DNA of 64,000 nucleotides from Betaproteobacteria bacterium (GTDB taxonomy: Bacteria; Pseudomonadota; Gammaproteobacteria; Burkholderiales; Burkholderiaceae_D), in the NCBI GenBank assembly GCA_013287275.1, contig JABDED010000001.1:186001-250000 (forward strand). The letters run 5' to 3'. Of the stretch, positions 339-15,968 are shown piece by piece; the stretch's first letter is position 1; each line of letters begins with the position of its first letter. Position numbers and translations under genes: made by a program. The notes under the pieces are model-generated. The model made no database searches and was not told where the DNA came from. It worked only from the letters and a program-made list of their open reading frames with translations.

Positions 339-366
339 AGCGGTCGCGAATTCTAAGGAGATGGAA

Positions 367-1221: not shown

Positions 1222-1385
1222 ACGAAATACTCTTGAGCGAAGACACAAAAGCCTTTTTAGTAGCCGTCGTTTTCATCGTCGTCTTGGCTATCGCGTTTTT
1301 AATCCTTGAGCTTTGCTTTGGCGAAAAAGACGAACCGGATTCTTTGAAGAACATCAATTTTGAAAATGCAGAAGACCATGAATAA
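1218..1385 (+). CDS. Small single-pass membrane protein, 55 aa
   Basis: GTG start overlapping the preceding TGA. Residues about 12-32 form one strongly hydrophobic helix (AFLVAVVFIVVLAIAFLIL), followed by an acidic cytoplasmic-type tail (GEKDEPDSLKNINFENAEDHE). No family recognised. It ends just before the ribosome-binding site of the first DGR target gene. Confidence 0.5.
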   Translation: MNEILLSEDTKAFLVAVVFIVVLAIAFLILELCFGEKDEPDSLKNINFENAEDHE

Positions 1386-1398
1386 CCAGGGAGCAGCA

Positions 1399-2325
1399 AT
1401 GCAAATCGAACTGACAAGAGAAGAATCGTTCACCGTGCGCGCCGGCGCCAAAGCTATCCACGGCATGCGTCACATAGGCGAGTGGAACGGCCTGGTCGAG
1501 TTACAGGACGCTGCCGGCCTGATGTTGATACTGAACGAAGGCCAGATCGTCAAGGGCTCTGCCGAGCTGCTGCAACTGCTGCGCCCGGTGTCTGCCGGCT
1601 TCGTGCCAGTACCTGGAATGGTCTTCCCACCGTCCAAGGCGTTGCCGAACGGCCTCACAGTTCCTGCTTTCTATGTTGCCCAGCACGCTACAACCCAGGG
1701 TGCAGACGGCAAAATTTCGCACGATCCAGCTTTGTATCCATGGGTGAACATCAATTTCTACAAGGCCATGGAAGCATGCAATGCCGCTGGCTATATCGGC
1801 ATCCGTGAAAGCCAATGGCTGGCGATTGCCGCGAATGCCGCCCAGCAGGATTGCAACTGGACCGGCGGCAAGGTTGGCGAAGGCGATCTCTTCCAGGGCA
1901 TCCGCAATGGCGGCTGCGCGCGGTCTGGTAATTACGTGCCGGCCAACGAGACCGAGCGCCGCTGGCTGATGCTATCGAATGGCTCCAAGGTATGCGATTT
2001 CAACGGGAATGTCTTCCAGTGGGTATTCGACGACATCCAGGGCGACGAGCGCGGCCTGATCACCAAGCCGTTCGATGCTGAGTCACCTTCGATTGCGCTG
2101 GCGCCCTACCCGTCCGAGCAAAAAGGAATGGGCTATCGCCCTTCTGCTGGCCGTGATTGGTCCGGCTATGCGCTCGTCCGAGGCGGCTTCTGGTACTCGG
2201 ACGACTATGCCGGCGTCTTCTATCTCTACGGCGGCCGTCCGGACTACGGGGGCGTCGGCCTCGGCTTCCGCTGCACCCTACCCATGGACTCTGATCCCCG
2301 GTCCCTGGTCACGGCAAAGCTGTGA
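1399..2325 (+). CDS. DGR variable protein 1 (C-type-lectin/SUMF1-like), 308 aa
   Basis: First DGR target. The start at 1399 is preferred over in-frame ATGs at 1360 and 1378 because GGGAG lies 5 nt upstream, and it gives 308 aa, the same length as target 2. Residues 1 to about 75 are a unique N-terminal part. From about residue 85 the protein matches target 2 through a formylglycine-generating-enzyme/C-type-lectin fold with recognisable segments (PWVNINFYKAMEACNAAGY, VGEGDLFQGIRN, VCDFNGNVFQWVFDDIQGDE). The C-terminus holds VR1, in which surface residues of the fold are diversified while the scaffold (ALVRGG, AGVF, GFRC) is fixed by non-adenine template bases. No signal peptide or membrane segment is visible, so location and ligand are unknown. 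It lies about 6 kb upstream of the DGR core. Confidence 0.9.
   Translation: MQIELTREESFTVRAGAKAIHGMRHIGEWNGLVELQDAAGLMLILNEGQIVKGSAELLQLLRPVSAGFVPVPGMVFPPSKALPNGLTVPAFYVAQHATTQGADGKISHDPALYPWVNINFYKAMEACNAAGYIGIRESQWLAIAANAAQQDCNWTGGKVGEGDLFQGIRNGGCARSGNYVPANETERRWLMLSNGSKVCDFNGNVFQWVFDDIQGDERGLITKPFDAESPSIALAPYPSEQKGMGYRPSAGRDWSGYALVRGGFWYSDDYAGVFYLYGGRPDYGGVGLGFRCTLPMDSDPRSLVTAKL
2161..2273 (+). repeat. DGR variable repeat VR1 (113 bp)
   Basis: Aligns without gaps to TR (8134-8246). Of 113 positions, 19 differ and every difference lies at a TR adenine (for example AGC to GGC, AAT to TAT, AAC to GGC, ATC to CTC). The 84 non-adenine positions are identical. The 3' end shared with TR (TCGGCTTCCGCTG) is the likely initiation-of-mutagenic-homing region; homology stops right after CGCTG. 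The A-only substitution pattern is the hallmark of mutagenic retrohoming. Confidence 0.97.
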
Positions 2326-2327
2326 CC
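2307..2327 (+). promoter_or_regulatory. DGR target-recognition hairpin downstream of VR1
   Basis: GGTCACGGC, loop AAA, then GCTGTGACC: a 9-bp stem with one G-T wobble, starting 34 nt after the end of VR1 and containing the TGA stop of the target gene. A nearly identical hairpin follows VR2, and none follows TR. In the Bordetella phage BPP-1 system such hairpins or cruciforms next to VR promote target recognition. The role here is inferred from that position and conservation. Confidence 0.8.
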
Positions 2328-2347
2328 TCTTAAATAAAGGAGGCATT

Positions 2348-2485: not shown

Positions 2486-2670
2486 AACAAAAATATAAGT
2501 CAAAGCCGAACAATAAGCAGTGCTGCGTATGTGGCGCCGTCGGGGCCAGGCGCATCGATATCCAAACAAACTGTTTCCGTGGCGATGACGTTGTGGTCAA
2601 TGTCTGCGACGAGCACCGCAAGGATGAGAAAACGATTCTGGCAACGCCACAGGCAAGGAAGCAAATGTGA
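2482..2670 (+). CDS. Small putative zinc-binding protein, 62 aa
   Basis: GTGA overlap with the preceding gene. CCVCG near residue 14 and VCDEH near residue 41 form a C-x2-C ... C-x2-H pattern typical of a small treble-clef or zinc-ribbon fold; the N-terminus is very basic (KQKYKSKPNNK). A nucleic-acid or protein-binding role is plausible but not demonstrated. Confidence 0.55.
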   Translation: MKQKYKSKPNNKQCCVCGAVGARRIDIQTNCFRGDDVVVNVCDEHRKDEKTILATPQARKQM

Positions 2671-2795
2671 TGACCAACGAAGCCAAGCGCCGCATCTCCG
2701 TCCGCATGACGATCGCGCTTGCCATGTATCGAATCGAGCGCAAATTCGGCAAGACCAGGATGCAGGCAGTCAGAACAGCAGTATTCAATAAATAA
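2670..2795 (+). CDS. Small basic phage protein, 41 aa
   Basis: The start shares its A with the preceding stop (TGATG). The product is basic and probably helical (AKRRISVRMTIALAMYRIER, then KFGKTRMQ). It ends 14 nt before the annealase gene. No family recognised. Confidence 0.4.
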   Translation: MTNEAKRRISVRMTIALAMYRIERKFGKTRMQAVRTAVFNK

Positions 2796-2809
2796 CAGGA
2801 GTAAAGATC

Positions 2810-3715
2810 ATGGCCGGAGAAGTTGTCCAAATACATAGCGCCACCGCGCTGACCGCAATGACGGAAGCCGAACTGGTAACAGTGCTGCAAACCAGCCTGT
2901 ACCCAGGCGCCAATATCAACAGCATCAAGATGGTGATCGGCTATTGCAAAGCTGCGAACCTGGACCCTATGCAAAAGCCGGTGCATATCGTGCCGATGTG
3001 GGACAAGAACGCGAAGCAGATGCGCGATGTGATCATGCCAGGCGTCGGCCTATACCGTACCCAAGCGGCCCGCAGCAATGCCCTGGCCGGCATCAGCGAG
3101 CCAGAATTCGGCCCTATGGTTGATATCCAGCTTGATAGCATGTCCTACAAGGTGCCCGAATCGTGTCGCGTCGTGGTGCGCCGCTTGCTGGCTAATGGCG
3201 TAGTGGGAGAATTCGCTGCTGTCGAGTATTGGATTGAAAACTACGCCACCGCCGGCAAGGACAGTCTCCAGCCTAATGCTATGTGGAAAAAGCGCCCACG
3301 CGGCCAACTGGCTAAGTGCGCTCAGGCGCAGGCACTGCGCATGGCATTTCCAGAAATGACCGGCAGCGCGCCGACCGCCGACGAAATGGAAGGCAAATCC
3401 TTCGAGGCCGAAATTGATATTACGCCGAAGACCTCGCAACCAGCAATAGAGGCGGCAAAAGAAGTGGCAAAAGAAGTGCATTTCCCGGACTGCACGCCGG
3501 AGATTTTCGCAGAGAAAAAGACAGGCTGGAGGCAAACAGTTCAATCCGGCAAAAAAACTGCCGATGATCTGCTGAAAATGCTCAGCACCAGGGCGACATT
3601 TACCGATGCGCAGCGCAAAGAGATTCTGTCTTGGGACGTTCCAGCGGATCAGCCTGATCCAGATGATGAATTTGTCGCGGCGATGGATGCCGCTGGCGAC
3701 TACGTGCCTCAATAG
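2810..3715 (+). CDS. bet: Bet/RecT-family single-strand annealing protein, 301 aa
   Basis: Phage annealase that would pair with the exonuclease encoded immediately downstream to carry out Red-type recombination of linear phage DNA. Residues about 20-190 resemble lambda Bet: ELVTVLQTSLYPGANINSIK, then YCKAANLDPMQKPVHIVP (Bet has an equivalent GLNPWTKEIYAFP), a central GVGLYRTQAARS, and KCAQAQALRMAFPE near the end of the domain. The C-terminal 100 residues are a variable acidic extension of the kind that often contacts SSB or the partner nuclease. ATG with AGGAG 7-10 nt upstream. The annealase-exonuclease pair supports a phage origin for the region. Confidence 0.85.
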   Translation: MAGEVVQIHSATALTAMTEAELVTVLQTSLYPGANINSIKMVIGYCKAANLDPMQKPVHIVPMWDKNAKQMRDVIMPGVGLYRTQAARSNALAGISEPEFGPMVDIQLDSMSYKVPESCRVVVRRLLANGVVGEFAAVEYWIENYATAGKDSLQPNAMWKKRPRGQLAKCAQAQALRMAFPEMTGSAPTADEMEGKSFEAEIDITPKTSQPAIEAAKEVAKEVHFPDCTPEIFAEKKTGWRQTVQSGKKTADDLLKMLSTRATFTDAQRKEILSWDVPADQPDPDDEFVAAMDAAGDYVPQ

Positions 3716-3724
3716 GAAAATATT

Positions 3725-5329
3725 ATGAAGATACACAATCTCATTCAAGGCACGGACGAGTGGGCGAAATTTCGCCTTGATCATTTCGGCGCCAGTGAAG
3801 CCGCTGCGATGTTGGGAATTTCCTCCAAGGTGAAGCGCACCGAATTGCTGCACATGAAATTCACATCGCAACCCAAGGAATTTAGCGTCTGGGTTCAAGA
3901 GCATATTCTGGACTATGGGCATGCTGTGGAGGCTCTGGCTCGACCGTTCGGCGAGGAATTGATCGGCGCCGAACTTTATCCTGTTACCTGCTCCGATGGG
4001 AAGCTATCCGCATCTTGCGACGGCCTGACCTTGCTTGAGGATTGCGGCTGGGAGCACAAGCAGTATAACGCGCAATTAGCCGCTGCCGTCGTCGCCAATG
4101 AATTATCAGACGAATTTATGGTTCAACCGCAGCAATGCCTAATGGTTACTGGTGCTGATCGTTGGATATTCTCGGTGTCAGACGGCACTAAGGAAGGTAT
4201 GGTTTCGATGACCATTCGCCCCGATCCCGCATGGTTCGAGCGCATCCGTGCCGGCTGGGAGCAATTCGCCAAAGACCTGGCCGAATACGTGCCGCTAGTA
4301 CATGCCGAAAAGCCGCAAGCAGAGGCAATCATGCAACTGCCAGCAGTCGTTATTAACGTGACTGGGTCACTATCCCTCTCCAACCTGGACGATGTCACGC
4401 CGAAATTTGATGCTTATTTGGCTTCTGTCCGCACAGATTTGCAGACAGACGAGCACTTTGTAAATGCAAAGGAAACCGCGAAATTTTCTCGTGAGGCTGC
4501 AAAGACATTGAAGCTAAAGGCCGATGAAGTGATAGGCCAAATTTCCAGTGTCAGCGAAGCAATCAGTATTTTGGAACTCTATGCGAAGAGATTTGATGCA
4601 CTGGGGCTCGCACAAGAAAAGCTGGTTGAGAAGGAAGAATCAGCGCGCAAACTGGAAATCATGACAGCAGCGAAAGAAAAATTCTCTGCGCATATCAAAG
4701 CGCTGGAGGCCGAAATAACACCGATAGTGCTGGGATTGCCGTTCCCTGACTTTGCTGGTGCGATGAAAAATAAGCGAACAATGGCCAGCCTGCGCGATTC
4801 GGTAGATACCTGCCTGGCAAACGCCAAAATCGCCGCCGATGCCTTGGCGCTCGCTGTGCGCACCAATCTGGCATATCTACGGGAATACGCAGCCGACCAT
4901 CTTTTCCTGTTCAGCGACCAGCAGAATATCATTTTCAAGGCTGCCGATGATTTCAAGATGCTGGTGAACAGCCGTGTCACCGAGCACAACCGCGCAGAGG
5001 AAGAAAAGCGGACTAAGGCGGCTGCGGTTGTACAAACTCAAGTTCAGCCGCAGACATCCGCGCCAGTCGCTACAAGCCATGCGCCGGCCACCGTAACTAC
5101 GATATCCACGCGCAAGCCAGTGACCTCCTCAGCCCCACCAAGTCTGCGGCTCGGTCAGATCGGCGAGCGCTTGGGCTTTGCGTTGACCGCCGACTTCCTC
5201 AAGAACCTTGGCTTCGAGCCTGCTGGCAAAGACAAGTCGGCAATCCTGTTCCACGAAAGCACCTTCGGCGAGATTTGCGCCGCCCTTGTAAAACATATCG
5301 CCCAGGTGCAGGCGAAGCAAGCAGCTTAA
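3725..5329 (+). CDS. YqaJ/lambda-exonuclease family nuclease with long C-terminal extension, 534 aa
   Basis: N-terminal about 200 residues are a YqaJ-type 5'-3' exonuclease: IQGTDEWAKFRLDHFGASEAA opens the domain and CDG ... GWEHKQYN (residues about 99-119) supplies the Asp and Glu-x-Lys metal-binding residues expected of the PD-(D/E)XK superfamily. Residues about 225-440 are helical and charged, resembling coiled coil. The last about 70 residues (LRLGQIGERLGFALTADFLK, then an alternating Ile/Ala helix) look like a small DNA-binding module seen at the end of other phage recombination proteins. Much longer than lambda Exo (226 aa), so this is a multidomain version. Starts 9 nt after bet. Confidence 0.85.
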   Translation: MKIHNLIQGTDEWAKFRLDHFGASEAAAMLGISSKVKRTELLHMKFTSQPKEFSVWVQEHILDYGHAVEALARPFGEELIGAELYPVTCSDGKLSASCDGLTLLEDCGWEHKQYNAQLAAAVVANELSDEFMVQPQQCLMVTGADRWIFSVSDGTKEGMVSMTIRPDPAWFERIRAGWEQFAKDLAEYVPLVHAEKPQAEAIMQLPAVVINVTGSLSLSNLDDVTPKFDAYLASVRTDLQTDEHFVNAKETAKFSREAAKTLKLKADEVIGQISSVSEAISILELYAKRFDALGLAQEKLVEKEESARKLEIMTAAKEKFSAHIKALEAEITPIVLGLPFPDFAGAMKNKRTMASLRDSVDTCLANAKIAADALALAVRTNLAYLREYAADHLFLFSDQQNIIFKAADDFKMLVNSRVTEHNRAEEEKRTKAAAVVQTQVQPQTSAPVATSHAPATVTTISTRKPVTSSAPPSLRLGQIGERLGFALTADFLKNLGFEPAGKDKSAILFHESTFGEICAALVKHIAQVQAKQAA

Positions 5330-5348
5330 TCAACCTTTGGAGAAAACC

Positions 5349-5612
5349 ATGAACACAGAAACTAAAGAGCATCCATTAATCACACTGACAGCAGTCAAGT
5401 CCAGCCAATTGCACGCCATCGGCCACGACCCGGCGACCAATACTCTGGCGATACAGTTTAAGTGTAAGAACGGCCCCGGCAGCGTGTACCACTATGCCAA
5501 TTTCACGGCAGAGCACTTCGCTGAATTTCAGGCCGCTGAATCGAAAGGATCGCATTTCAAGCGCGCGATTAAGCCGGCGACGGAGCAGCATCCTTACGTC
5601 AAGGTCAGCTAG
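5349..5612 (+). CDS. KTSC-domain protein, 87 aa
   Basis: The ATG at 5349 follows GGAG; the upstream TTG is not needed. The VKSSQLHAIGHDPATNTLAI segment, then SVYHYANF and ESKGSHFKRAIKP, match the KTSC domain (named for a Lys-Thr-Ser-Cys-type motif), found in small phage proteins and in some RNA-linked enzymes. Function of the stand-alone form is unknown. Neighbour of recombination genes in many phages. Confidence 0.75.
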   Translation: MNTETKEHPLITLTAVKSSQLHAIGHDPATNTLAIQFKCKNGPGSVYHYANFTAEHFAEFQAAESKGSHFKRAIKPATEQHPYVKVS

Positions 5613-5635
5613 ATCATCGACACTGGGAATTGTTA

Positions 5636-5938
5636 ATGGAAACCATCACCCTACCTATTGCCCTGATTGACTCGCCCGAGTTCAACGGGCTGCAATGGGG
5701 TGATCAGAAATTCCTGTTTTCGCTTTACGCGGTTTTTCATGACACGCAGCGATTCACGATAGATATCAATGAGCCGGAACAGTACCGCCAATCTCGCGGC
5801 GTTTATCTGGTCAACAGGATTCATCGCCTTGTCAAAGCTGGATTGCTCATTATTACCGGCAGACAGAAGGCGAGTAAGTACGGTCACGTCAGAGTGTTTG
5901 AATTCAAATATACAGTTAATCGGGAGAAAGCATGCTAG
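5636..5938 (+). CDS. Phage hypothetical protein, possible winged-helix fold, 100 aa
   Basis: The ATG at 5636 is chosen over the TTG at 5630. The central VYLVNRIHRLVKAGLLIITG followed by RVFEFKYTV resembles the recognition helix and wing of winged-helix proteins, so a DNA-binding role is possible. I cannot name a family. Its stop overlaps the next gene by 7 nt. Confidence 0.5.
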   Translation: METITLPIALIDSPEFNGLQWGDQKFLFSLYAVFHDTQRFTIDINEPEQYRQSRGVYLVNRIHRLVKAGLLIITGRQKASKYGHVRVFEFKYTVNREKAC

Positions 5939-6222
5939 CCGAACAAACAAAGCAAGCCGACGAGGAAGCCGCCAAAGCCGACGCCAACGTCCAAAGCATC
6001 GCCGCAATGCTGGTGAATGCGCCGCATGTCAATACAAATCCGATCATGCATGCGCCATTGCTAGAACCTGATGCAAAAGCCCTCGGTGATGCCGAGCTGT
6101 CCGAGGTTATTGCAGGCCCAAGCGATCATCAAATGATTTGCGCAGTCGCTGAAAGGTTTGATCTGCCCACATTCAGGGCTGCCGAACTGATGAGCAAGAT
6201 CGACTATTTGCAGTTTATCTAA
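5932..6222 (+). CDS. Phage hypothetical protein, 96 aa
   Basis: Overlaps the preceding gene by 7 nt. An Ala/Glu-rich helical N-terminus (EQTKQADEEAAKADANVQS) is followed by a second compact segment (ELSEVIAGPSDHQMICAVAE, then FRAAELMSKIDYLQF). Soluble; no recognised domain. It directly precedes the second DGR target gene. Confidence 0.5.
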   Translation: MLAEQTKQADEEAAKADANVQSIAAMLVNAPHVNTNPIMHAPLLEPDAKALGDAELSEVIAGPSDHQMICAVAERFDLPTFRAAELMSKIDYLQFI

Positions 6223-6257
6223 TCCGTGCTGGAAGCACAAACCGAGAAGGAAGCAGA

Positions 6258-7184
6258 ATGAACGCAATCGCAGAAGCGCCGGCAATCGACCAGAAGGCAG
6301 TCGGCATTTATCATAAATTCAACGTTGAGCGTACCGACGGCAGCAGCGCGCCAGGCGGCAAGCACGAGGGCGACGAATACTTCGTTTTGAACCTGACCAC
6401 CGACAAGCATGCTCTGCCGGCCCTGGCCGCTTATGCGAAGTCTTGCGCGAACGACTATCCGGTCTTGGCCGCTGATCTGCGCACAAAATGCCAGTCGCTG
6501 CAAAAGGATGAATTTGCCCAGGTGCCAGAAACCACGCTGCCAAATGGTCATGTTGAACCTGCTTTCCTGGTCGGCAAATACCTGAGCGGACGGGGTGATG
6601 CCGGTCAGCTCGTCGTCAACGCGGAAGCCGCACCCTGGGTTGAAATCGACTACCACGCCGCGCGCGCCGCTGCCGAGGCAGCCGGTTACAAGCTGATCAC
6701 CGAAACACAATACCTGGCCCTGGCATACAACATCGCCAACGTGGCCGCGAACTGGTCCAGCGGCATCGTCGGCGAAGGCTCGCTGCAGCAGGGCCTGCGC
6801 AATGACAGCGTTGACGAGGCACAACCTGGCACGTTCATTTCTAATGACGAAGACGAAACCCGTGTTTTCACCTTATCTAATGGCGAAACCGTCTATGACG
6901 TCGCCGGGAATGCCTATTCCTGGGTGTTTGACAACGTCCAGGGCGATGAAAACGGTCTGATCGCCAAGTCCTTTGCAGCAGATAGCCCGTCAATAACCAC
7001 AGCGCCAGCGCCTTCCATGCAAAAAGGTGTTGGCTGGTATCCCAGCGCGGGTTCGGATTGGTCCGGCCATGCGCTCGTCCGGGGCGGCTACTGGGACTCG
7101 GGCGACTATGCCGGCGTCTTCCGTCTCGGCGGCGGCCATCCGGGCTGCGTGAACGACGGCGTCGGCTTCCGCTGCACCAAATAG
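6258..7184 (+). CDS. DGR variable protein 2 (C-type-lectin/SUMF1-like), 308 aa
   Basis: Second DGR target, immediately upstream of the accessory protein, TR and RT. The N-terminal about 90 residues (HKFNVERTDGS, GGKHEGDEYFVLNL, HALPALAAYAKSCANDYPVL) form a separate domain that I recall in other phage early proteins and that differs completely from target 1. From about residue 95 it matches target 1: PAFLVGKYLSGRGDAGQL, PWVEIDYHAARAAAEAAGY, VGEGSLQQGLRN, YDVAGNAYSWVFDNVQGDE, then VR2 and a terminal GFRCTK. The fold is that of formylglycine-generating-enzyme-like DGR targets. No export signal is visible. What the variable face binds cannot be read from sequence. Confidence 0.92.
   Translation: MNAIAEAPAIDQKAVGIYHKFNVERTDGSSAPGGKHEGDEYFVLNLTTDKHALPALAAYAKSCANDYPVLAADLRTKCQSLQKDEFAQVPETTLPNGHVEPAFLVGKYLSGRGDAGQLVVNAEAAPWVEIDYHAARAAAEAAGYKLITETQYLALAYNIANVAANWSSGIVGEGSLQQGLRNDSVDEAQPGTFISNDEDETRVFTLSNGETVYDVAGNAYSWVFDNVQGDENGLIAKSFAADSPSITTAPAPSMQKGVGWYPSAGSDWSGHALVRGGYWDSGDYAGVFRLGGGHPGCVNDGVGFRCTK
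7062..7174 (+). repeat. DGR variable repeat VR2 (113 bp)
   Basis: Gap-free alignment to TR (8134-8246) shows 20 differences, all at TR adenines (for example AAT to CAT, AAC to GGC, AAT to CGT, GAG to GTG). All 84 non-adenine positions are conserved. Two AA-type codons near the 3' end (AAC GAC) are unchanged, while VR1 has changed them, so the two copies have been diversified independently. Confidence 0.97.
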
Positions 7185-7209
7185 CTCGGGTTTCTGATCC
7201 CCGGTCACG

Positions 7210-7230
7210 GGTCACGGCGTAGCTGTGACC
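7210..7230 (+). promoter_or_regulatory. DGR target-recognition hairpin downstream of VR2
   Basis: GGTCACGGC, loop GTA, then GCTGTGACC, 35 nt after VR2 and after the TAG stop of the target gene. Stem sequence is the same as at VR1, only the loop differs. The flanking CTGATCCCCGGT is also shared with the VR1 site. It does not occur after TR, as expected for a signal that marks targets and spares the template. Confidence 0.8.
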
Positions 7231-7259
7231 TTCTTAACTAACCTATAACTCATATCAAA

Positions 7260-8108
7260 ATGCAAGAATTCCAACACCCCAATCAGGAAGAGCAGCAACA
7301 GTTCCGCATTACTTCGGTTCAAGGTATAGAGCTGGGCCTCGGCCAGGCGGATCCAGTGGCCGTCATCTCAGCAAAACTGGAGCAGCAATACCCGAATCAC
7401 CTGATCCTGGTCCAGGCAGGGAAATTCTTGCATGGGTACGATCGCACGGCGCACGCCCTGAACGTGTTGAAAAAATACAAAATAAAGCTGGTCGGCACCG
7501 CCGAGGCGCCGCATATTCGTGTCGGATTTCCAGCGGGAAATTTTAAAAAGCGCCTGTGGTCCATTGTCGATGAGTTCAGCATCCCCTACGTCGTCGCCCT
7601 CGGCAACCAGACGCAGGGTCATACGGTCTACGTCTCGGACAATGCCGCCGGCAACACTTCGGTGCTCGCCGCCGTCACACCGGATATCGTCAGCCAGATT
7701 ATTCACGACTTGCGCCAGCACGCTACCCTGAACACGGCCGCCGCGGCGCAGATGCTGGCCAGCCCCGATTCGTCCGGCTTCAAACTCAAATCCCAGGCGC
7801 AGGACCTGGACATCCAGCTGTTGCAGGACATCATCAAGATGCCGCGCGATATCCGCGTCACCTACGGCGAGAACCTACGCGCCTGCATGGCCAGGGTGAT
7901 GCTCAATATCTTTAGCTACGGCACGAACCTCGACAAGCGAGCCGTCTTGCAGCGTATCTCAGCCGATATCGACCTCCTGAAGCATTATCTGGCCCAGGCT
8001 CCAAAGCTAAGCAAACTCAAATTCGCATTCGAGCACAGAGTTAGCTTAGCTGTTGAGCTCGGCAGGCTTGTGGGCGGCCTCATCCGTTCCGCAGGAGCAG
8101 CAGCATGA
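7260..8108 (+). CDS. avd: DGR accessory protein: MutS-I-like domain fused to Avd-like helical bundle, 282 aa
   Basis: Accessory factor for mutagenic retrohoming. Residues about 25-125 resemble the MutS N-terminal domain I: YPNHLILVQAGKFLHGYD, then ALNVLKKYKIKLVG, RVGFPAGNFKKRLWSIVDE and YVVALGNQ. Residues about 165-280 match the Avd four-helix bundle: LLQDIIKMPRDIRVTYGENL, helices containing NLDKRAVLQRISADIDLLKH, and a final VELGRLVGGLIR. Avd in Bordetella phage binds the RT and template RNA and is required for homing. MutS-like DGR accessory proteins have been described as a separate gene type in DGR surveys (from memory); here both parts are one polypeptide. The stop overlaps the RT ATG. 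Confidence 0.85.
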   Translation: MQEFQHPNQEEQQQFRITSVQGIELGLGQADPVAVISAKLEQQYPNHLILVQAGKFLHGYDRTAHALNVLKKYKIKLVGTAEAPHIRVGFPAGNFKKRLWSIVDEFSIPYVVALGNQTQGHTVYVSDNAAGNTSVLAAVTPDIVSQIIHDLRQHATLNTAAAAQMLASPDSSGFKLKSQAQDLDIQLLQDIIKMPRDIRVTYGENLRACMARVMLNIFSYGTNLDKRAVLQRISADIDLLKHYLAQAPKLSKLKFAFEHRVSLAVELGRLVGGLIRSAGAAA

Positions 8109-9385
8109 TCAACAAAGGGAATTCTCTGCAAAGTCCAGCAATGCGCTCATCCGAGGCGGCTACTGGAACTCGAACGACAATGCCGGCGTCTTCAATCTCA
8201 ACGACGACCATCCGGACTACGAGAACGACAACATCGGCTTCCGCTGACCCAACAATTTCATACTTAAATCGTGAGCATGCTCCCGTAAAGCCAATTATTG
8301 GTCGAGAATTTCCTGGGCGAACCCCGAAAGCACGGCTTATAGCCAAGCCCCAGACCGCCGCGGCTGATGTCGCGGTGGAATGCGGTTCCCTTTTCCACCA
8401 GCTCACGTCCCTGGACAATCTGTTCCAGTGCTGGCTGAAGGCGAAAAAGAACAAATCCAAGAGTCTGCGCGTGCAGCGCTTTGGCGAAGACCCGCTGCAC
8501 TACCTGCTGATCATCCAGCAGCGGCTGCGCGCCGGCACCTACAGCTTCGGCCCGTACAAGACCTTTACGGTCCAGGAAAAGAAATTCCGCTGCGTGGTTG
8601 ATGCGCCGATGAAGGACCGGATCGTGCACTGGATGTTGTACGAATACCTGCTGCCCATCTGGCAACCGCGCTTCATCCATGACACTTTCGGTAATCTGCC
8701 AGGACGCGGCACGCATGCGGCTGTCAATCGGCTGGCCCAGTTCTGCCGGGCACCAAGCTGCAAATGGGTGCTGCAGCTTGATGTCTCCAAGTATTTCTAT
8801 TCGGTCAACCATGATCTACTGAAGGCACGCGCGCTGCGCTATGTCGGCGACCATGAGCTGCGCCGGCTGATCGTCATCCTGGTGGACTCGTTCCGCACGG
8901 ATGGCCAGTTCGATGACCTGTTTGCCGCCGCCAGCATGTATCGCCAGACGGCGGCCAAGGGAATGCCCATCGGTAACCTGAGTAGCCAGCTGTTCGCCAA
9001 CATCTACCTGAACGAATTTGACCACTGGATGAAGGAAACGCTCCAGGTCAAAAAGTACATCCGCTATGTGGATGACCTGGTCATTCTGGCCGCGACACAG
9101 CAGGAACTTGCGGAGTTGTGCGAGCAGATCGTCGCGAAGCTGGCCGTCGACGGCCTGGCAATCCACCCGAAGAAGATCCGGCTGGCGCCGGTTGCTGCCG
9201 GGATCCCGTTCTTAGGCTATGTGACTTGGCCTAACCACATTTCAGCCGGTAAATACGTGCGCGGCCGGTACCACCAACGGCTCCGCCAGCATGAAGCTGG
9301 CATCTTCGATCGTACCGATACGCTCCGCTCTTACGCGGCCATGTTTTCTCACACCGGATCCACTATTTATAGGAAAGCTGCATGA
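8105..9385 (+). CDS. DGR reverse transcriptase, up to 426 aa
   Basis: Group-II-intron-like RT of the DGR clade. The RT domain begins near [19 protein letters not shown] and runs through [16 protein letters not shown] (RT motif 2 region), [17 protein letters not shown] (motif 3), [20 protein letters not shown] (residues 287-306; SQ instead of the QG of most RTs is DGR-specific) and YVDD (321-324, catalytic). Start: the ATG at 8105 overlaps the avd stop and has AGGAG 7 nt upstream, but then the protein would read through TR in another frame (low-complexity Thr/Ser). A non-canonical later start such as the GTG at 8375 would give about 336 aa but lacks a ribosome-binding site. The stop overlaps the methyltransferase start (ATGA). 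Confidence 0.93.
8134..8246 (+). repeat. DGR template repeat TR (113 bp)
   Basis: Lies between the avd stop and the RT core, the usual DGR position. It has 29 adenines, concentrated in the first two positions of AAC/AAT and GAC codons when read in the target frame, so mutagenesis cannot create stop codons at the AAC/AAT/TAC sites. Read in the target frame it would encode [13 protein letters not shown] and similar, ending in TGA directly after CGC. The 3' end TCGGCTTCCGCTG is shared with both VRs, after which TR reads ACCC and the VRs CACC. No downstream hairpin. Confidence 0.97.
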
Positions 9386-10487
9386 GCCAGACGCATGAAG
9401 CCTACTACAACGAAATTGATCCAATCGCAGCGCAGACCTTGCGCAACCTGATCGCCGCTGGCCACATTGCGCGCGGAATTGTAGATGAAAGGAGTATCGA
9501 GGATGTCCACCCCAGCGACCTGCGAGGATTCACCCAGTGCCATTTCTTCGCTGGATTCGGCGTCTGGTCTCTCGCGCTCCGGCGCGCCGGTTGGACAGAT
9601 GATCGACCTGTTTGGACCGGTTCCTGTCCTTGCCAACCTTTCAGCGCGGCAGGCCAAGGAGCTGGGTTTAATGACGAGCGGCACCTCTGGCCAGCCTTCT
9701 ATCACCTCATCGGCGAGCACGGCCCTTCAGACGTCTTTGGAGAACAAGTTGCGAGCAGTGACGCAGACGCTTGGATCGACCTTGTACAAACTGACATGGA
9801 AGCCCTGGGTCACGCCTTCGGGGCGGTCCCGTTTCCGTCTGCGGGCATCGGTGCGCCGCACATCCGAGACCGCACTTATTGGGTGGCCCACTCCCAAAGT
9901 AACCGACACGAACGGGCCAGGAAACTCAGAAAATCGGCAAGGGGGAATGGCTCTGCACACAGCCGCACAATTATGCGGGTGGGCAACACCAGCGGCCAGG
10001 GACTGGGTGAGTGCGAGTGCGAGTGCGGAATTCTTGGAGGATCGTCTGCAACAGTCAAGGGGGAAACCTCTATCAGAACAGGCATTCACTCTTGCGGGCT
10101 GGCCGACGCCGACGGTCGGCAATGCGATGGGTTCTCAATCGTCGGAAGGGCTGAGCGCCACTGGCAAGACACCGGACGGCCGCAAAGTATCGGTCAGTCT
10201 GAATCACGTAGCAAAAATGGCAAGTTGGGGGGGGGCAGCGCAGACGCGAGCCAAGCGAACTGGTCATCCTGGACAACGGAGTGTGGACCGGCCCGACTAA
10301 CGGATTCTGGGGAGATGCTGACTGGCTCTTCTGCAGGGATGGAAAGTGGCGGCCAGTTGAACCCGGCACATTCCCGCTGGCTAATGGGGCTCCCGCCAGA
10401 GTGGGACGATTGCGCGGCTATGGAAACGCGATCAATGCTAAACAAGCGGAAATCTTTATAAAAGTGGCGATGGAGAGTTTCACGTGA
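9382..10487 (+). CDS. C5-cytosine DNA methyltransferase, reading frame broken at a G9 tract
   Basis: Transfers a methyl group from SAM to cytosine in DNA. Residues 53-62 ([10 protein letters not shown]) are motif I, 81-87 (SCPCQPF) hold the catalytic Cys84, FGEQVAS near 118-124 takes the place of motif VI ENV, and RDRTYWVA near 163 is motif VIII. The ORF as read stops at 10461, but the expected C-terminus ([20 protein letters not shown], then [19 protein letters not shown], motif X) lies in another frame ending at 10487. One extra base in the G run at 10227-10235 would join the two parts. The ATG overlaps the RT stop and the 10487 stop overlaps the next GTG, so the joined gene fits the operon exactly. 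Probably a phage orphan methyltransferase protecting its DNA; target unknown. Confidence 0.85.
9503..10461 (+). CDS. Overprinted protein inside the methyltransferase gene, frame broken at the same G9 tract
   Basis: A second reading frame inside the methyltransferase gene. The ATG at 9503 has its own AAAGGAG (9488-9494) 8 nt upstream. The product has features I recognise from a family of unknown phage proteins always found in this overlapping position: [39 protein letters not shown], and repeated GWPTP or GWATP motifs. In the sequence as given it stops at 10300. After the G9 tract the expected ending ([18 protein letters not shown], then [11 protein letters not shown]) continues in the frame that stops at 10461. 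Function unknown; dependence on the host gene's sequence is obvious from the shared codons. Confidence 0.6.
10227..10235 (+). repeat. Poly-G tract (G9) that breaks two overlapping genes
   Basis: Nine consecutive G. Upstream of it the methyltransferase and the overprinted protein use two frames; downstream their conserved C-termini are both found displaced by the same one-base deletion. This could be slippage (phase variation), a fixed mutation or a sequencing error in a homopolymer. Confidence 0.9.
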
Positions 10488-10777
10488 CCGTATATCCAAA
10501 ACTGCACCTTCACCTAAAAGGCGAATATTTCGACCAGATCAAGGCCGGTGCGAAGCTGGAAGAGTTCCGCCTGCGCACGCCCTACTGGATCAAGCGCATC
10601 CGGAGCCGGACATACAGCGGCATCGTGATTCATCGGGGCTATCCGGCAAAGGATACGTTTGAATTCACCATCCTAAGGCCGTGGCGCGGCTTCACCGAAA
10701 AGACCATCACGCATCCGCACTTCGGCTTGGCGCCTGTGGAAGTGTTTGCCATTATTGTGAACGAGGAATCGAAATGA
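10484..10777 (+). CDS. ASCH-domain protein, 97 aa
   Basis: GTG start overlapping the TGA at 10487 that ends the methyltransferase C-terminal frame. LHLHLKGEYFDQIKAGAKLEEFRLRTPYW followed by IVIHRGYP is typical of ASCH domains, a beta-barrel related to PUA that is thought to bind RNA or act on nucleobases/nucleosides. Phage ASCH proteins often sit beside DNA-modification genes. Substrate unknown. The stop overlaps the next ATG. Confidence 0.75.
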   Translation: MTVYPKLHLHLKGEYFDQIKAGAKLEEFRLRTPYWIKRIRSRTYSGIVIHRGYPAKDTFEFTILRPWRGFTEKTITHPHFGLAPVEVFAIIVNEESK

Positions 10778-11358
10778 CACAAATTGATATCCAAAAATTC
10801 TGCGCCCGCGAAGATGATGATCGCAAGCACATCCAGAAGCCGCATAAACACGGCGAATATGTCTATGCAACGAACGGACATATTTTGGCGAGGTTTCGCG
10901 ATGCTGAAGCAGGACAGCATTGGGAGGATAAATTCATGGACAAGGTTCAGAAATTGCACGCTAAATCCTTGGGGCGCGCCAGCCTAAAATGGAAACGGGA
11001 CATCATTAAATTACCGCCCGCCATAGAATGCTCGTATTGCGATGGCGAAGGAAAATTAGCTGACTGCGACGACTGCAACGGCAACGGCAATTTTGAACAT
11101 GGAAAGCATTACTACGAATGCAAAGAATGTAATGGAGCGGGACGGATGAATCCGCCCGAGATATGCCATTCTTGTTCCGGCACGGGTAAAGATGGGTCGC
11201 AGCGCGTGAAGGTAGGTGTTTCGCATATCGCCCGCAGGTATGCCGAATTAATCCTTGCCCTGCCAAACCTTGAGGTCGCGCCGAATCTGGATGATAAGGC
11301 GGCTATCCCTTTCCGCTTTGACGGCGGTGACGGCATTCTTATGCCACTGATGAAATAA
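10774..11358 (+). CDS. Stand-alone DnaJ-type zinc-finger protein, 194 aa
   Basis: Start at the ATG overlapping the previous stop. The centre carries four C-x2-C-x-G-x-G-like repeats (CSYCDGEG, CDDCNGNG, CKECNGAG, CHSCSGTG), the cysteine-rich zinc-finger of DnaJ, without a J domain. The N-terminal about 80 residues (MTQIDIQKFCAREDDDRKH, then YVYATNGHILARF) and the C-terminal about 50 (SHIARRYAELILALPNLEV) may be a split clamp-like fold: YATNGHILARF resembles segments in phage proteins of unknown role. Chaperone-like or nucleic-acid-binding function is possible. Confidence 0.6.
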   Translation: MTQIDIQKFCAREDDDRKHIQKPHKHGEYVYATNGHILARFRDAEAGQHWEDKFMDKVQKLHAKSLGRASLKWKRDIIKLPPAIECSYCDGEGKLADCDDCNGNGNFEHGKHYYECKECNGAGRMNPPEICHSCSGTGKDGSQRVKVGVSHIARRYAELILALPNLEVAPNLDDKAAIPFRFDGGDGILMPLMK

Positions 11359-11362
11359 AGCC

Positions 11363-11656
11363 ATGACCCTAGACATCACCCACCTGAACAAGGTAACGGA
11401 TGCGGCAATTGAATTTGAAAATCTCAATATTCATATTGGTGATGAAGGATTTGATCTTCACAAACTCGCAATGAAAAGCGCGGCCTTACATCATTTCAGA
11501 AATGCCTTCAATCCCCAAACAGCCAGGGCGCTCCTGGATAGGCTGGAGCAATTGGAAAATTTTATCGGCCTAATATCGCATCTTAAATACAGCGATAAAG
11601 TAGATATTGAAGCCATCAGCGGCGGCGCAAAATTACTTTTGGAGAAAGAGAAATGA
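11363..11656 (+). CDS. Phage hypothetical protein, 97 aa
   Basis: Starts 4 nt after the previous gene. Acidic and mainly helical (LNKVTDAAIEFENLNIHI, then LLDRLEQLENFIGLISHL). No family recognised. The stop overlaps the next ATG. Confidence 0.5.
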   Translation: MTLDITHLNKVTDAAIEFENLNIHIGDEGFDLHKLAMKSAALHHFRNAFNPQTARALLDRLEQLENFIGLISHLKYSDKVDIEAISGGAKLLLEKEK

Positions 11657-11787
11657 AAAAAATTAGCCCACGTAGGAAATTAAAAAAATTTATCAAGGCC
11701 ATCAAAAGAGCGCGCAAGGAATGGCTGTCTTGGCCGCAAGCACGCCGTGACGGTTGTCAACTTCAAGGAAGTCGAGGTATGGAATGA
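11653..11787 (+). CDS. Small very basic protein, 44 aa
   Basis: ATGA overlap with the preceding gene. The N-terminus is a run of Lys and Arg (KKISPRRKLKKFIKAIKRAR) suggesting nucleic-acid contact, followed by KEWLSWPQARRDG. Too short to classify. A further 17-codon ORF overlaps its end (11784-11837) and leads into the next gene. Confidence 0.4.
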   Translation: MKKISPRRKLKKFIKAIKRARKEWLSWPQARRDGCQLQGSRGME

Positions 11788-11833
11788 ATGCCGACCAACA
11801 AGCAAAGCATGATGAAGTGATGGAGCCTCGAAA

Positions 11834-12055
11834 ATGAATGCTCATCAACGACGAATTTATAATCGAGCAAATCCAAGTTATTCATGCGGATATCAAGGTC
11901 GGCATTTTGGAGCTACATATCCAGATGCAAGTTGCTGGAATCATTATCTGATTGATGATGATCTTGGGGGTTACGATCCAAACGTAAGCCGCATACCATG
12001 CCCTAACTGCAATTCTGAAGAATACAAACAATACCGTAAAGATTTGGAGGAATGA
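11834..12055 (+). CDS. Phage hypothetical protein, 73 aa
   Basis: ATG overlaps the TGA of the tiny ORF before it. Tyr/Asn-rich N-terminus (HQRRIYNRANPSYSCGYQG) and a CPNC motif near residue 59 that could bind a metal with the earlier Cys residues. GC is lower here than in the flanking host genes. Function unknown. Confidence 0.45.
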   Translation: MNAHQRRIYNRANPSYSCGYQGRHFGATYPDASCWNHYLIDDDLGGYDPNVSRIPCPNCNSEEYKQYRKDLEE

Positions 12056-12056
12056 T

Positions 12057-13190
12057 ATGACGCTTATAGCCAAAAAAGGCCGCTGTCCATATTGTGGTAG
12101 GGATGAAACTCCAATCGCCCAGCTATGCGCAAAGCCTGATAGCATTCCCAGCATTGCACAGGAAACCTTCGACCTCTATGAAAACGTAAATTCATTGATG
12201 GCGCATATCGGCGCGCATGGGAATATCTCTTCCGATAGCGTTCTAGTCGATGCTGTCATGAATTCGCTTGACGCGCTTGACGGTGGCAAAGTTTCAACGC
12301 GCATTGATGATCTAATAGAGAAGGCTTTCATGCCGGCAGACCAAGCTACAAAGCTTGCGGTCAACGAATTTATTTTAACGGCCATGGCAAAGCCTGATAG
12401 CGCAGTTAAACAAGAATCTGGTTGGCTAGTAGAAAATGGCAAGTCAGGCGATGCTTTGCGTTATAGAACAATGTCGGATGAAGGCATTGTATGGACTGCT
12501 AATCATATGGAGGCATTGCGCTTTGCAAGACGTGCTGATGCTGAAAGATTTTGCGCTGAAGACGATGAAGCAGAACGTATTGCCGAACATATTTGGATGG
12601 GTGATGTTCAAACAAAACCTGATAGCGCAGACCAGGTTCCGGATGTCAAGTTCATGGTGAATAGGTTTCTTGGATGGCCATTGCCTAAGACATTCAGTCC
12701 AGATTGCGGAATTAGTTTTGATGGTCGCAAAAATGATGAATGGAATAAAAGTAAGCAATGGCCGATAGGGACAAATCTGCTTACTGCCGACGAAGCAAAG
12801 GAGATGTTTGAATATGTGTTGAAATCTGCCGCCCCTCTCAATATCGCGCAGCAAGCGCCTGATGGCTACGCACAAGTGCCCGTTTGGCTTCGCGTTCCGA
12901 GATATGCGAATGATGGACAGACACGCTCCGATGACGGTCCATACGTAAGCATATCTGATTGTAATCGCGAAGCTAATGGCAAAGCATCTGAAAATTATCC
13001 CGTGGCGGTCGCCGCCCTCCAATCCCAGTTATCCCAAGCCCAAGAAGAGATTGCGCGGCTGAAGGAGGACACGTCCAAGCTAGTTGTTTCTCTGTGCGAT
13101 ATCTTAGCTTGGATGGATAACATGAATTACTGGTGTCCGGAAGTAGATGCGGCGCAAGCCGTTATTCTTCGCGAACAGGGGCGGCCATGA
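12057..13190 (+). CDS. Mosaic phage protein with internal KPDS repeats, 377 aa
   Basis: Begins with a CPYCG knuckle (residues 10-14). It then carries three copies of a KPDS element (LCAKPDSIPS, AMAKPDSAVK, QTKPDSADQ), each at the junction of what look like separate small modules. The middle module (ESGWLVENGKSGDALRYR, then EALRFARRADAERFCAE) resembles short domains found in other phage hypotheticals. The C-terminus has DGYAQVPVWLRVPRY and a coiled coil (LQSQLSQAQEEIARLKEDTS). The architecture suggests assembly by module shuffling. No enzymatic motif. The stop overlaps the next ATG. Confidence 0.55.
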   Translation: MTLIAKKGRCPYCGRDETPIAQLCAKPDSIPSIAQETFDLYENVNSLMAHIGAHGNISSDSVLVDAVMNSLDALDGGKVSTRIDDLIEKAFMPADQATKLAVNEFILTAMAKPDSAVKQESGWLVENGKSGDALRYRTMSDEGIVWTANHMEALRFARRADAERFCAEDDEAERIAEHIWMGDVQTKPDSADQVPDVKFMVNRFLGWPLPKTFSPDCGISFDGRKNDEWNKSKQWPIGTNLLTADEAKEMFEYVLKSAAPLNIAQQAPDGYAQVPVWLRVPRYANDGQTRSDDGPYVSISDCNREANGKASENYPVAVAALQSQLSQAQEEIARLKEDTSKLVVSLCDILAWMDNMNYWCPEVDAAQAVILREQGRP

Positions 13191-14553: not shown

Positions 14554-14723
14554 CCACACCTAAACTCCTGCCTGTGATGGAATGGGCGAAACAGACGATG
14601 GGCGAGCACGTCCCAACGATCAAGACGCTGCGCGAATGGTGCGGCGTCGGCAAGATTCAACCTCAGCCAAAGAAGATCGGCCGGCGCTGGTTCGTCGTAC
14701 CGCATGCGGAATATCGAGAATGA
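14550..14723 (+). CDS. xis: Putative excisionase, 57 aa
   Basis: Fits exactly between its neighbours with ATGA overlaps at both ends. The sequence LLPVMEWAKQTMGEHVPTIK, then TLREWCGVGKIQPQPKKIGRRWFVV, has the order of a winged-helix MerR/Xis-like fold: an N-terminal helix-turn-helix, then a wing-type ...G.RWFV strand. Small basic recombination-directionality factors of this form usually precede phage integrases and bend attachment-site DNA. Being coupled to the integrase, the two would be produced together. Assignment rests on size, motif and position. Confidence 0.7.
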   Translation: MTTPKLLPVMEWAKQTMGEHVPTIKTLREWCGVGKIQPQPKKIGRRWFVVPHAEYRE

Positions 14724-15820
14724 ACGCCAGGCGCCGCACAGCGGCCCGGCGCGGCCTTCCTCCCAATCTTTATCAAAAGGCAAATGGGTATTTCTATTTT
14801 AGAAATCCCATCACCAAAAAGGATAAGGGAATTGGGCACGATAAGAATGAGGCCCTGCGTGAGGCGCGAGCAGCCAATGCGGCGCTGGAAGAAAAGAAGG
14901 GGCAGCGCAACACGGTCGCTGATTGGGTGAGAGGGAAATCTGTTCGCACGGTCAAAGAATGGGCCGCCGAGTATGAGGCTGAAATCATCGAAAAAGGTGA
15001 GAAAAAACCCAATACCTTGACGATGATCAAGTCCGCGCTCCGCGCCATCGTCGCCAGTGACTTCGCAGAGCTTGATTTAAAGGACGTGACCACCGAGCAC
15101 TGCGCTACCTTTATTCGCACCTGCGAGATAGAGCGCGGCCCGCGCATGGCCCAAGTCATCCGGACCAGGCTCAAGGATCTATTCCTGGCAGCTTGTGAGC
15201 GCGGCTTTATCAATGTCAACCCGGTAAAAGAAACGCGCGTGCCGAAGGCCAAGGTAAAGCGCGATAGGCTGTCCATTGAACAATTCTTGGCTATACGCAC
15301 GGTCGCCGAGCCGTGGCTCGTCAATGCGATGAACCTTGCCATTTTGACCGCCCAGGCCCGGGAGTATATTTCAGATGGCCTCTTTGATGATGCGCATGAC
15401 GGTTTTCTATGGATTATCCGGGGAAAAACCGAAGCCAAGATCCGTGTCCAGCTCGATCTACGTCTTGACGTTGTCGGATTATCCATTGCAGAACTGATCA
15501 GGCAATGCCGCGACAATGCGATATCAAAATACCTAATCCACCGGTCGCGCTCCAAGGGAAAGGCCAAGGCAGGATCAAAATACAGCCTGAGCACCATCAC
15601 CAAGGAATTTGCAAAAGCTCGCAAACTCGCCAAGATTACCTGGCGCGAGGGCCGCACGCCGCCCTCTTTCCATGAGATCCGGTCCTTGTCTGAACGCCTG
15701 TATCATGACCAATATGGAGGCCAATTCACCCAAAAGTTACTCGGCCATAAGTCGGAAAAAATGACCGCCGTATATCATGATGTGCGCGGTTCGGAGTGGA
15801 TAAACGTAACTACTGGATAA
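14720..15820 (+). CDS. int: Tyrosine integrase, lambda type, 366 aa
   Basis: Site-specific recombinase that would insert and, with Xis, excise the element. N-terminal RRGLPPNLYQKANGYFYFRNP is an arm-type DNA-binding domain like that of lambda integrase. Residues about 75-160 are the core-binding SAM-like domain, and the catalytic domain follows. HEIRSLSE gives His318 and Arg321, LLGHK gives His343, and TAVYHD gives the nucleophile Tyr352. The upstream catalytic Arg is in TAQAREYI near residue 211. Start at the ATG overlapping the excisionase stop; an upstream in-frame extension from 14582 is out of the operon pattern. It ends the + strand cluster, so the attachment site should lie just downstream. 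Confidence 0.92.
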   Translation: MNARRRTAARRGLPPNLYQKANGYFYFRNPITKKDKGIGHDKNEALREARAANAALEEKKGQRNTVADWVRGKSVRTVKEWAAEYEAEIIEKGEKKPNTLTMIKSALRAIVASDFAELDLKDVTTEHCATFIRTCEIERGPRMAQVIRTRLKDLFLAACERGFINVNPVKETRVPKAKVKRDRLSIEQFLAIRTVAEPWLVNAMNLAILTAQAREYISDGLFDDAHDGFLWIIRGKTEAKIRVQLDLRLDVVGLSIAELIRQCRDNAISKYLIHRSRSKGKAKAGSKYSLSTITKEFAKARKLAKITWREGRTPPSFHEIRSLSERLYHDQYGGQFTQKLLGHKSEKMTAVYHDVRGSEWINVTTG

Positions 15821-15968
15821 CATTTTTATTATGGACGAATTATAGACTTTAATAGACGAATGGCGTGGATAGTGGCTCTCAGGCTATTATCCTATGCCAA
15901 TTTGGCATGGGACATTTTTTCCACATTTGCGTAATATGGCGATAATCGTCTTCCATAAAAAAACACCC

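What the first reader, a model, noticed from the sequence alone, without database searches (positions are those of the whole stretch)
6258..9385. Complete diversity-generating retroelement in a prophage, with two targets
TR (8134-8246), VR1 (2161-2273) and VR2 (7062-7174) align over 113 bp without gaps. I counted 19 and 20 substitutions, and all 39 are at TR adenines (29 adenines in TR); none of the 84 other positions differ. With an RT containing YVDD and IGNLSSQ, an Avd-like partner and target hairpins, this is a full mutagenic-retrohoming machine. Its targets would evolve while all non-adenine codons stay fixed. DGR logic is established knowledge from Bordetella phage BPP-1; the substitution count is direct observation.
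Basis: partly seen in the sequence, partly recalled or inferred. Interest (0 to 1): 0.95.

Follow-up and report, generated by a model that had tools for sequence, protein, structure and literature searches.

The report
Hypermutation cassette with translated template
A bacterial virus integrated in this genome carries a targeted gene-hypermutation machine of a type seen working in its relatives; its template RNA appears to be read as protein too, and its helper protein carries a domain shared with DNA mismatch repair.

Summary
It is a diversity-generating retroelement (DGR) in a siphovirus prophage with two C-type-lectin-like targets. Relatives are live: two 12,834-bp copies differ at 8 sites, all in one VR at TR adenines.

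(1) The 'Avd-like partner' is MutS domain I fused to Avd; the MutS wedge Phe and a His in place of MutS Glu are invariant in 19 of 19 aligned sequences. A MutS_I accessory (MSL) is known; whether its Avd half is known I could not check. (2) TR and spacer form a covarying RNA inside an open frame that starts on the fusion's stop codon (ATGA). In 51 of 64 distinct loci this frame runs into RT; in 9 it runs into other genes (H-NS C-domain, PAPS reductase, three methyltransferase families, unknowns), joined right after the RNA element. TR overlapping an RT ORF is a known annotation class; the conserved open template with exchangeable downstream genes is what looks new. Translation is inferred, not measured; some loci offer internal start codons. 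The proposed roles (mismatch-repair shield; ribosome/RT competition) are hypotheses.

The parts
1360..2325 (+). target gene 1 (FGE-sulfatase / C-type lectin fold), carries VR1; the real start may be an ATG further in (1399)
   Evidence: PF03781 3.4e-4, below cutoff; phrog_2889 2.3e-27
2161..2273 (+). VR1
   Evidence: 19 A-only differences from TR
2307..2327 (+). hairpin after VR1
   Evidence: near-copy after VR2 (D3)
6258..7184 (+). target gene 2 (FGE/C-type lectin fold), carries VR2
   Evidence: PF03781 8.9e-6; model matches FGE, TaqVP 5vf4, Mtd 1yu3
7062..7174 (+). VR2
   Evidence: 20 A-only differences from TR
7209..7231 (+). hairpin after VR2
7260..8108 (+). MutS domain I - Avd fusion (282 aa), the accessory protein
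   Evidence: bAvd in 18/19 and MutS_I in 11/19 homologues at E<=0.1; phrog_3206 Avd 1.2e-6; fold matches
7335..7652 (+). MutS domain I part (aa 26-131), invariant G54, F56-L57-H58
   Evidence: best Z 11.6 to human MutSbeta, 10.2-10.8 to E. coli and Taq MutS rows; invariants
7776..8096 (+). Avd part (aa 173-279)
   Evidence: 4dwl Z 8.2, 8ub8 Z 7.7; bAvd and phrog_3206 profiles
8105..8386 (+). inferred translated leader: ATGA start on the fusion's stop codon, through TR and spacer, in frame with RT
8134..8246 (+). TR
8236..8385 (+). covarying RNA element (TR 3' end plus spacer); 8245-8249 pairs with 8300-8304; the partner of 8236-8237 differs between the two alignments
8387..9385 (+). reverse transcriptase part of the 426-aa ORF 8105-9385
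   Evidence: PF00078 1.8e-24; phrog_1423 3.8e-103
14582..15820 (+). prophage integrase (near the right end of the element)
   Evidence: phrog_7244 1.1e-50

Best explanation
A DGR of a live type in a temperate siphovirus prophage. Shown by sequence: TR is copied into VR1/VR2 with changes at adenines only, and near-identical relatives differ just there. Shown by homology and fold: the accessory protein is MutS domain I fused to Avd. Shown by covariation: TR 3' end and spacer fold into one RNA; its TR-end TGACC pairs with GGTCG of the spacer (invariant, so not itself proven by covariation), as expected of an RNA that holds the primer next to the TR end; the priming step is inferred from BPP-1. 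Strongly inferred: ribosomes also read this RNA, from the ATGA at the fusion's stop codon, as a ~94-aa leader that continues into RT or, in some relatives, into another gene with RT re-started downstream. Hypotheses: (a) the MutS-I/Avd protein covers the mismatched cDNA:VR heteroduplex and keeps host MutS (present in this host) from undoing the edits; (b) RT-Avd binding to the folded spacer and translation through it exclude each other, tying RT supply to template use.
For: A-only TR/VR differences and near-identical relatives that differ in a VR alone. Fusion; both halves in one ORF in 66 of 69 close-RT loci, the other three being cut by the contig end. Leader: ATGA in 63 of 64 distinct loci, the 64th (L094) has the ATG 4 nt earlier, in frame and open; a stop within 285 nt in frame 0 in 1 of 63 loci against 63 and 62 of 63 in the other frames, spacer alone 1 vs 45 and 17; RT in frame in 51 of 64, of which 12 have no ATG/GTG/TTG between TR end and RT domain; Shine-Dalgarno-like match of 4+ nt before this ATG in 60 of 64, against 21% of other ATGs and 19 of 57 in-frame start-like codons in the spacer, so that 13 of 64 loci have an internal candidate with such a match and 26 of 64 have no internal candidate at rel. 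147-300; nine cargo-type loci, plus L087 cut inside TR, in which the same leader joins other proteins right after the last RNA pair. RNA: 17 of 37 pairs compensatory in 21 loci, 0 of 500 shuffles reach the covariation score; 20 of 35 in 64 loci. Host MutS on contig C24.
Against: No expression or proteomic data. In the spacer, codon positions vary almost equally (0.307/0.293/0.352, against 0.25/0.19/0.48 in RT), so amino acids there are hardly constrained. 39 of 51 fused loci, the window included (GTG 8375, SD match 3 nt), have some later ATG/GTG/TTG. In 7 of 9 cargo loci an internal codon has an SD-like match of 4+ nt (mostly GTG in the last stem or TTG at rel. 195); L028 has a GTG without one, and only L100 has none, so cargo fusion alone does not prove reading from the first ATG. 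An ATG inside TR (8141) is an alternative start, SD-like in 33 of 54. MutS_I and bAvd are below Pfam's cutoff in the window; model pLDDT is about 80 for the MutS part and 48-72 for the Avd part. The mismatch role is untested, and MutS Glu is replaced by His. BPP-1 works without a MutS domain, and deletion of mutS did not change repair of its 18-nt reporter in E. coli (PMC12875486, passages).
Confidence: 0.8

Rival explanations
1. TR and spacer are not translated. RT starts at a weak internal codon (GTG 8375 in the window), and the open frame is a by-product of TR composition and of RNA constraint.
For: 39 of 51 fused loci hold some later ATG/GTG/TTG; 7 of 9 cargo loci have an internal start-like codon with a 4+ nt SD match; spacer codon positions nearly flat; among the more distant DGRs, L112-L114, L116 and L121 have RT starting on its own ATG about 300 nt after Avd.
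Against: 12 fused loci have no such codon before RT; in L033 the first ATG is followed only by a GTG at rel. 372, inside RT. Only 13 of 64 loci have an internal candidate with an SD-like match against 60 of 64 for the first ATG. In the spacer frame 0 holds stops in 1 of 63 loci, the other frames in 45 and 17.
Confidence: 0.13
2. The MutS-I domain is not a mismatch shield but binds the template RNA, the cDNA/RNA hybrid or the VR hairpin, or only scaffolds Avd.
For: In BPP-1 the RT-Avd complex is recruited by the spacer RNA (PMC12875486, introduction); MutS Glu is replaced by an invariant His; fold similarity shows no function.
Against: The residue aligned with the MutS wedge Phe is invariant (19 of 19).
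Confidence: 0.4
3. Decayed DGR, no longer active in this prophage.
For: The genome is a fragmented assembly estimated 56% complete, and no VR population could be read for this strain.
Against: The parts are intact; no change in 168 non-A VR positions; near-identical relatives differ in a VR alone.
Confidence: 0.04

Closest known systems
Bordetella phage BPP-1 DGR (avd-TR-brt, mtd target)
   Same: Order Avd-TR-spacer-RT, A-specific change, structured spacer, stem-loop after VR (PMC12875486, introduction); Mtd among fold matches of target 2
   Different: In BPP-1 the spacer lies between TR and brt; here TR and spacer lie in the RT reading frame; Avd is fused to MutS domain I; RT 31.6% identical to BPP-1
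MSL (MutS-like, PF01624) accessory of DGRs
   Same: A MutS_I domain protein of DGR cassettes (named in PMC10053308, passages read; a likely primary source, recalled, was not held)
   Different: Whether described MSL proteins end in an Avd domain could not be checked
[quoted passage not shown] PMC3521204, section read)
   Same: TR overlaps the 5' end of the RT ORF
   Different: That class rests on annotated ORFs; here the frame is conserved over 64 loci, starts on the accessory gene's stop codon, holds a covarying RNA and can lead into other genes
MutS domain I (E. coli and Taq MutS, human MutSbeta)
   Same: Fold and the aligned wedge Phe (low-probability alignment)
   Different: No other MutS domain found; Glu of F-x-E is His

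Membership tests
Diversity-generating retroelement | TR/VR repeats differing at template adenines only | tested here: met
   39 of 39; 817/1266 A vs 22/4271 non-A over 49 pairs
Diversity-generating retroelement | DGR-type reverse transcriptase with SQ motif | tested here: met
   YVDD and IGNLSSQ in the window; invariant IGNL-SQ in the 14 aligned RTs, one with T for the first S; phrog_1423. Link of the SQ motif to DGRs: PMC3521204 (passage)
Diversity-generating retroelement | Avd or other accessory protein | tested here: met
Diversity-generating retroelement | stem-loop downstream of VR | tested here: met
   best inverted repeat at 27-62 nt after each of 49 VRs (copies included) scores 7.5-11.5; 300 letter shuffles of one downstream stretch: mean 5.4, maximum 10; TR control 5.5; stems share sequence across loci
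Diversity-generating retroelement | VR changes in nature while TR stays | tested here: met
   in relatives, not in this strain
Diversity-generating retroelement | RT and Avd needed for retrohoming | not testable with these tools
   needs genetics
MSL accessory protein (MutS_I, PF01624) | MutS_I domain | tested here: met
   below cutoff in the window; 11 of 19 relatives match at E<=0.1, best 8.3e-5; fold Z up to 11.6
MutS mismatch-repair protein | domains beyond I, including ATPase | tested here: not met
   282 aa; only MutS_I and bAvd found by Pfam and fold
Avd family (PF22296) | Avd helical domain | tested here: met
   18 of 19 match at E<=0.1, best 4.1e-5, window below cutoff; phrog_3206; 4dwl Z 8.2, weak alone for a helical bundle

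The most novel reading that the evidence does not exclude
The DGR template RNA is itself a protein-coding leader: ribosomes read TR and spacer in a second frame, the resulting leader is joined to RT or to exchangeable phage genes, and ribosome traffic versus RT-RNP assembly on the same RNA sets the hypermutation rate, while a MutS-domain/Avd chimera shields the mutated heteroduplex from host mismatch repair.
Probability: 0.3. Interest if true: 0.8.

Novelty: new variant of a known kind. Interest (0 to 1): 0.62.

Why it matters
How the mutated DGR cDNA is integrated into its target is described as unknown in PMC12875486 (introduction), and whether mismatch repair acts on the edits is a natural companion question (mine). 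A natural MutS-domain/Avd chimera makes the latter directly testable. A template conserved both as RNA and as open reading frame, to which different genes have been joined at the same point, would link translation to hypermutation and suggests a natural plug-in site for engineering.

Tried and rejected
Considered and dropped: further VRs elsewhere in the genome (none found, incomplete assembly); RecT/RecE between the targets as a fixed partner of the cassette (recT- or recE-like hits in 6 of 29 other loci, L010, L013, L014, L021, L023, L030, two of them copies of one phage; many loci are short); strong amino-acid selection on the leader (flat; synonymous fraction 0.368 vs 0.314 and 0.245, weak). 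Rfam gave no match at gathering score in window 1-16000. The profile of the fusion against PDB sequences gave nothing convincing (best E 0.13). No tblastn relative of the fusion in 50,697 phage records. Profile hits in 1 of 369 genomes of the class (own) and 2 of 398 of the phylum (own plus one at 1e-10, not followed). No tRNA in the window. Paper searches: (open-licence papers only, listings capped, most listed papers not opened); PMC8144416 main text has no MutS, Avd, HRDC or MSL. None of what I saw reports a translated TR or a MutS-Avd fusion.

Rows dropped before counts: L025 (no TR in reach) and L009 (VR cut by the contig end) gave no pair; the L028 VR with 10 non-A changes was left out only; 94 loci were collapsed to 64 by identical 800 nt around the fusion stop, some of the remaining 64 being close relatives; L094 left out of the stop counts; L047, L087 and L102 are cut by the contig end. 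Of 13 loci in which RT is not in frame: L028, L029, L073, L080, L083, L092, L093, L100, L105 are cargo type; L031 runs into unassigned sequence; L049 has two TR copies, the first disrupted; in L107 and L111 the leader enters RT in frame and a shift follows inside RT. L022/L023 have identical VRs, but their differences lie at the ends of the aligned stretch.
Full report
Observation. TR 8134-8246, VR1 2161-2273 and VR2 7062-7174 align without gaps; all 19 and 20 differences are at TR adenines, none at the 84 other positions; chance about 1e-14. A-only disagreement reaches over 118 nt. Both targets are FGE/C-type-lectin-like; the model of target 2 (pLDDT 70) matches formylglycine-generating enzymes first, and the DGR variable proteins TaqVP (5vf4, rank 11) and Mtd (1yu3, rank 37) lower down. 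No other TR copy is in the assembly, estimated 56% complete.

Setting. The integrase lies at 14582-15820 and a FAD oxidoreductase gene follows. Left of the window the same contig carries tail, tape-measure, major head, portal and terminase genes, and replication and repressor genes: a siphovirus-type prophage. A 15-nt repeat at C1:138393 and window 15891 is a candidate attachment site (a single match of that length, about 0.16 expected by chance by my estimate). The targets lie apart from the tail module.

Relatives. The accessory protein finds 22 viral contigs and 7 loci in bacterial genomes or MAGs, by their titles Solimicrobium, Aromatoleum, Rhodocyclales, Duganella, Pseudothauera, a Lysobacteraceae and an unplaced proteobacterial MAG. 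The RT profile finds 130 viral loci, 80 kept: 69 at 64-76% identity, 11 at 32-36%. Over 49 TR-VR pairs in 28 loci (copies included; VRs accepted at 85% or more identity outside adenines, which limits but does not set the result), 817 of 1,266 adenines and 22 of 4,271 other positions differ; 10 of the 22 are in one VR of L028. In 40 distinct pairs A became G 381, T 180 and C 97 times and stayed A 372 times. L006 and L026, 12,834 bp, differ at 8 sites, all in one VR at TR adenines. L011 and L012: TR 0/113, VR 30/226 all at A, rest 199/5,334. Pairs L006/L007, L013/L014, L005/L027 and L022/L023 show no VR difference; more diverged pairs (L016/L017, L019/L021, L006/L010, L028/L029) also show TR changes and some VR changes off adenines, as ordinary divergence would give. 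The best inverted repeat after each of 49 VRs lies 27-62 nt downstream and shares stem sequence across loci.

Accessory protein. 7260-8108 matches bAvd (E 0.0072) and MutS_I (0.051), both below cutoff, and PHROG Avd (1.2e-6). Of 19 sequences bAvd is hit in 18 and MutS_I in 11 at E<=0.1, best 4.1e-5 and 8.3e-5. The AlphaFold2 model (mean pLDDT 67; about 80 in the MutS part, 48-72 in the Avd part) matches MutS domain I over residues 26-131 with Z up to 11.6 and Avd 4dwl over 173-279 with Z 8.2; the last is weak alone for a helical bundle. F56-L57-H58 is invariant in 19 of 19 and falls on the host MutS F-Y-E in an ungapped stretch of a low-probability alignment. That this Phe stacks on mismatches and the Glu contacts the base in MutS is recalled. 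A MutS_I accessory, MSL, is named in PMC10053308 (passages). Both halves sit in one ORF in 66 of 69 close-RT loci; the other three are cut by the contig end. Of the 11 distant RT loci 7 have an Avd hit without the MutS part and 4 have no hit.

Template inside a reading frame. The fusion's stop and the RT-frame start overlap as ATGA (8105-8108), and the frame is open through TR and spacer into RT. Over 64 distinct loci: ATGA in 63, and L094 has the ATG 4 nt earlier, in frame and open. A stop within 285 nt: frame 0 in 1 of 63 loci (L049, first of two TR copies), other frames in 63 and 62; spacer alone 1, 45, 17. RT is in frame in 51 of 64; 12 of these have no later ATG/GTG/TTG before RT, 39 have some. 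A 4+ nt Shine-Dalgarno match stands before the first ATG in 60 of 64, against 21% of other ATGs in these loci; before the ATG inside TR in 33 of 54, so that one may also serve; before 19 of 57 in-frame start-like codons at rel. 147-300, found in 38 of 64 loci, 13 loci having one with such a match.

Cargo. In nine of the other 13 loci the same leader is joined to another protein: H-NS C-domain (L028, L029; Pfam 1.4e-8 for L029, and for its copy L058; L028 by the same sequence), PAPS reductase (L080 2.8e-24; L100 by PHROG 2.2e-48), D12 methyltransferase (L083 3.6e-22), Dam PF05869 (L092 2.1e-11), N6_N4 methylase (L093 6.4e-13), unknown (L073, L105). L087, cut inside TR, joins the leader to a PAPS-reductase-like frame resembling L080 (by eye). 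Cargo stop and RT start overlap as ATGA in seven of the nine and as TAATG in L073 and L093. The join falls after the last RNA pair (8384-8385 in the window). L080 and L083 read GTA and TTA near the join, but in 7 of the 9 an internal codon, mostly a GTG in the last stem, has an SD-like match; L028 has a GTG without one; L100 has none. So cargo fusion supports, but does not alone prove, reading from the first ATG. Cargo loci keep TR/VR pairs with at most 1 non-A change (L028 has one decayed VR), and each of six records searched has one RT match.

RNA element. Spacer and TR end fold with 37 pairs, 17 with compensatory change, 96.5% of cells paired, 0 of 500 shuffles reaching the covariation score, slid versions far lower; in all 64 loci 35 pairs with 20 compensatory. 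TR-end TGACC pairs with spacer GGTCG; four of these five pairs never vary in 64 loci and so neither support nor oppose the structure by covariation. In BPP-1 a spacer adenine primes cDNA at IMH* (PMC12875486, introduction); by analogy this helix would bring the primer to the TR end. Within the spacer the three codon positions change nearly equally, so RNA constraint dominates while the frame stays open.

Mechanism. DGR activity is shown for relatives and very likely here. Translation of the leader is strongly inferred. Its purpose is open: keeping the operon translated (against polarity), coupling RT to Avd, or feedback between ribosomes and RT-Avd on the folded RNA. The MutS-I part I take as most likely shielding edited heteroduplex from host MutS (present). 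PMC12875486 removed mutS expecting to preserve substitutions but saw no effect of MutS on an 18-nt insertion reporter (passages): in line with a role for substitutions, no proof.

Known and new. DGRs, a MutS-like accessory and TR overlapping the annotated RT end (PMC3521204 group 3, section read) are known. I found no account of a conserved open template, of exchangeable genes joined to it, or of a MutS-Avd fusion in the searches listed under Tried and rejected; the recalled primary MSL paper was not available.

Noticed in passing
window 9382-10461: A C5 cytosine methyltransferase ORF begins on the RT stop codon (ATGA again), so target 2, accessory, RT and methyltransferase may form one coupled operon.
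   Followed up: no
window 2810-5329: RecT and a RecE-like exonuclease lie between the two targets; a ssDNA-annealing protein could help cDNA homing. Similar genes were found near the cassette in 6 of 29 relatives.
   Followed up: partly
L049 2642 and about 3711: Two identical TR copies; the first frame is disrupted, the second leads into RT.
   Followed up: partly
L015, L018, L022, L023, L028, L031, L033 VRs: Of the 12 non-adenine TR/VR differences outside the L028 VR, 7 are T in TR and G in VR, perhaps TR adenines that later mutated.
   Followed up: no
C1:138393 and window 15891-15905: 15-nt repeat at the start of a FAD oxidoreductase gene, candidate prophage attachment site.
   Followed up: partly
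G607 contig 166 (L123): A distant match to the fusion profile (E 1e-10, profile positions 29-200) in another genome of the phylum.
   Followed up: no
L013 vs L014: Two otherwise identical contigs differ by 33 nt of gap.
   Followed up: no
L087 1-1200: Contig begins inside TR; the leader frame continues into a PAPS-reductase-like protein, a further cargo case not in the count of nine.
   Followed up: partly
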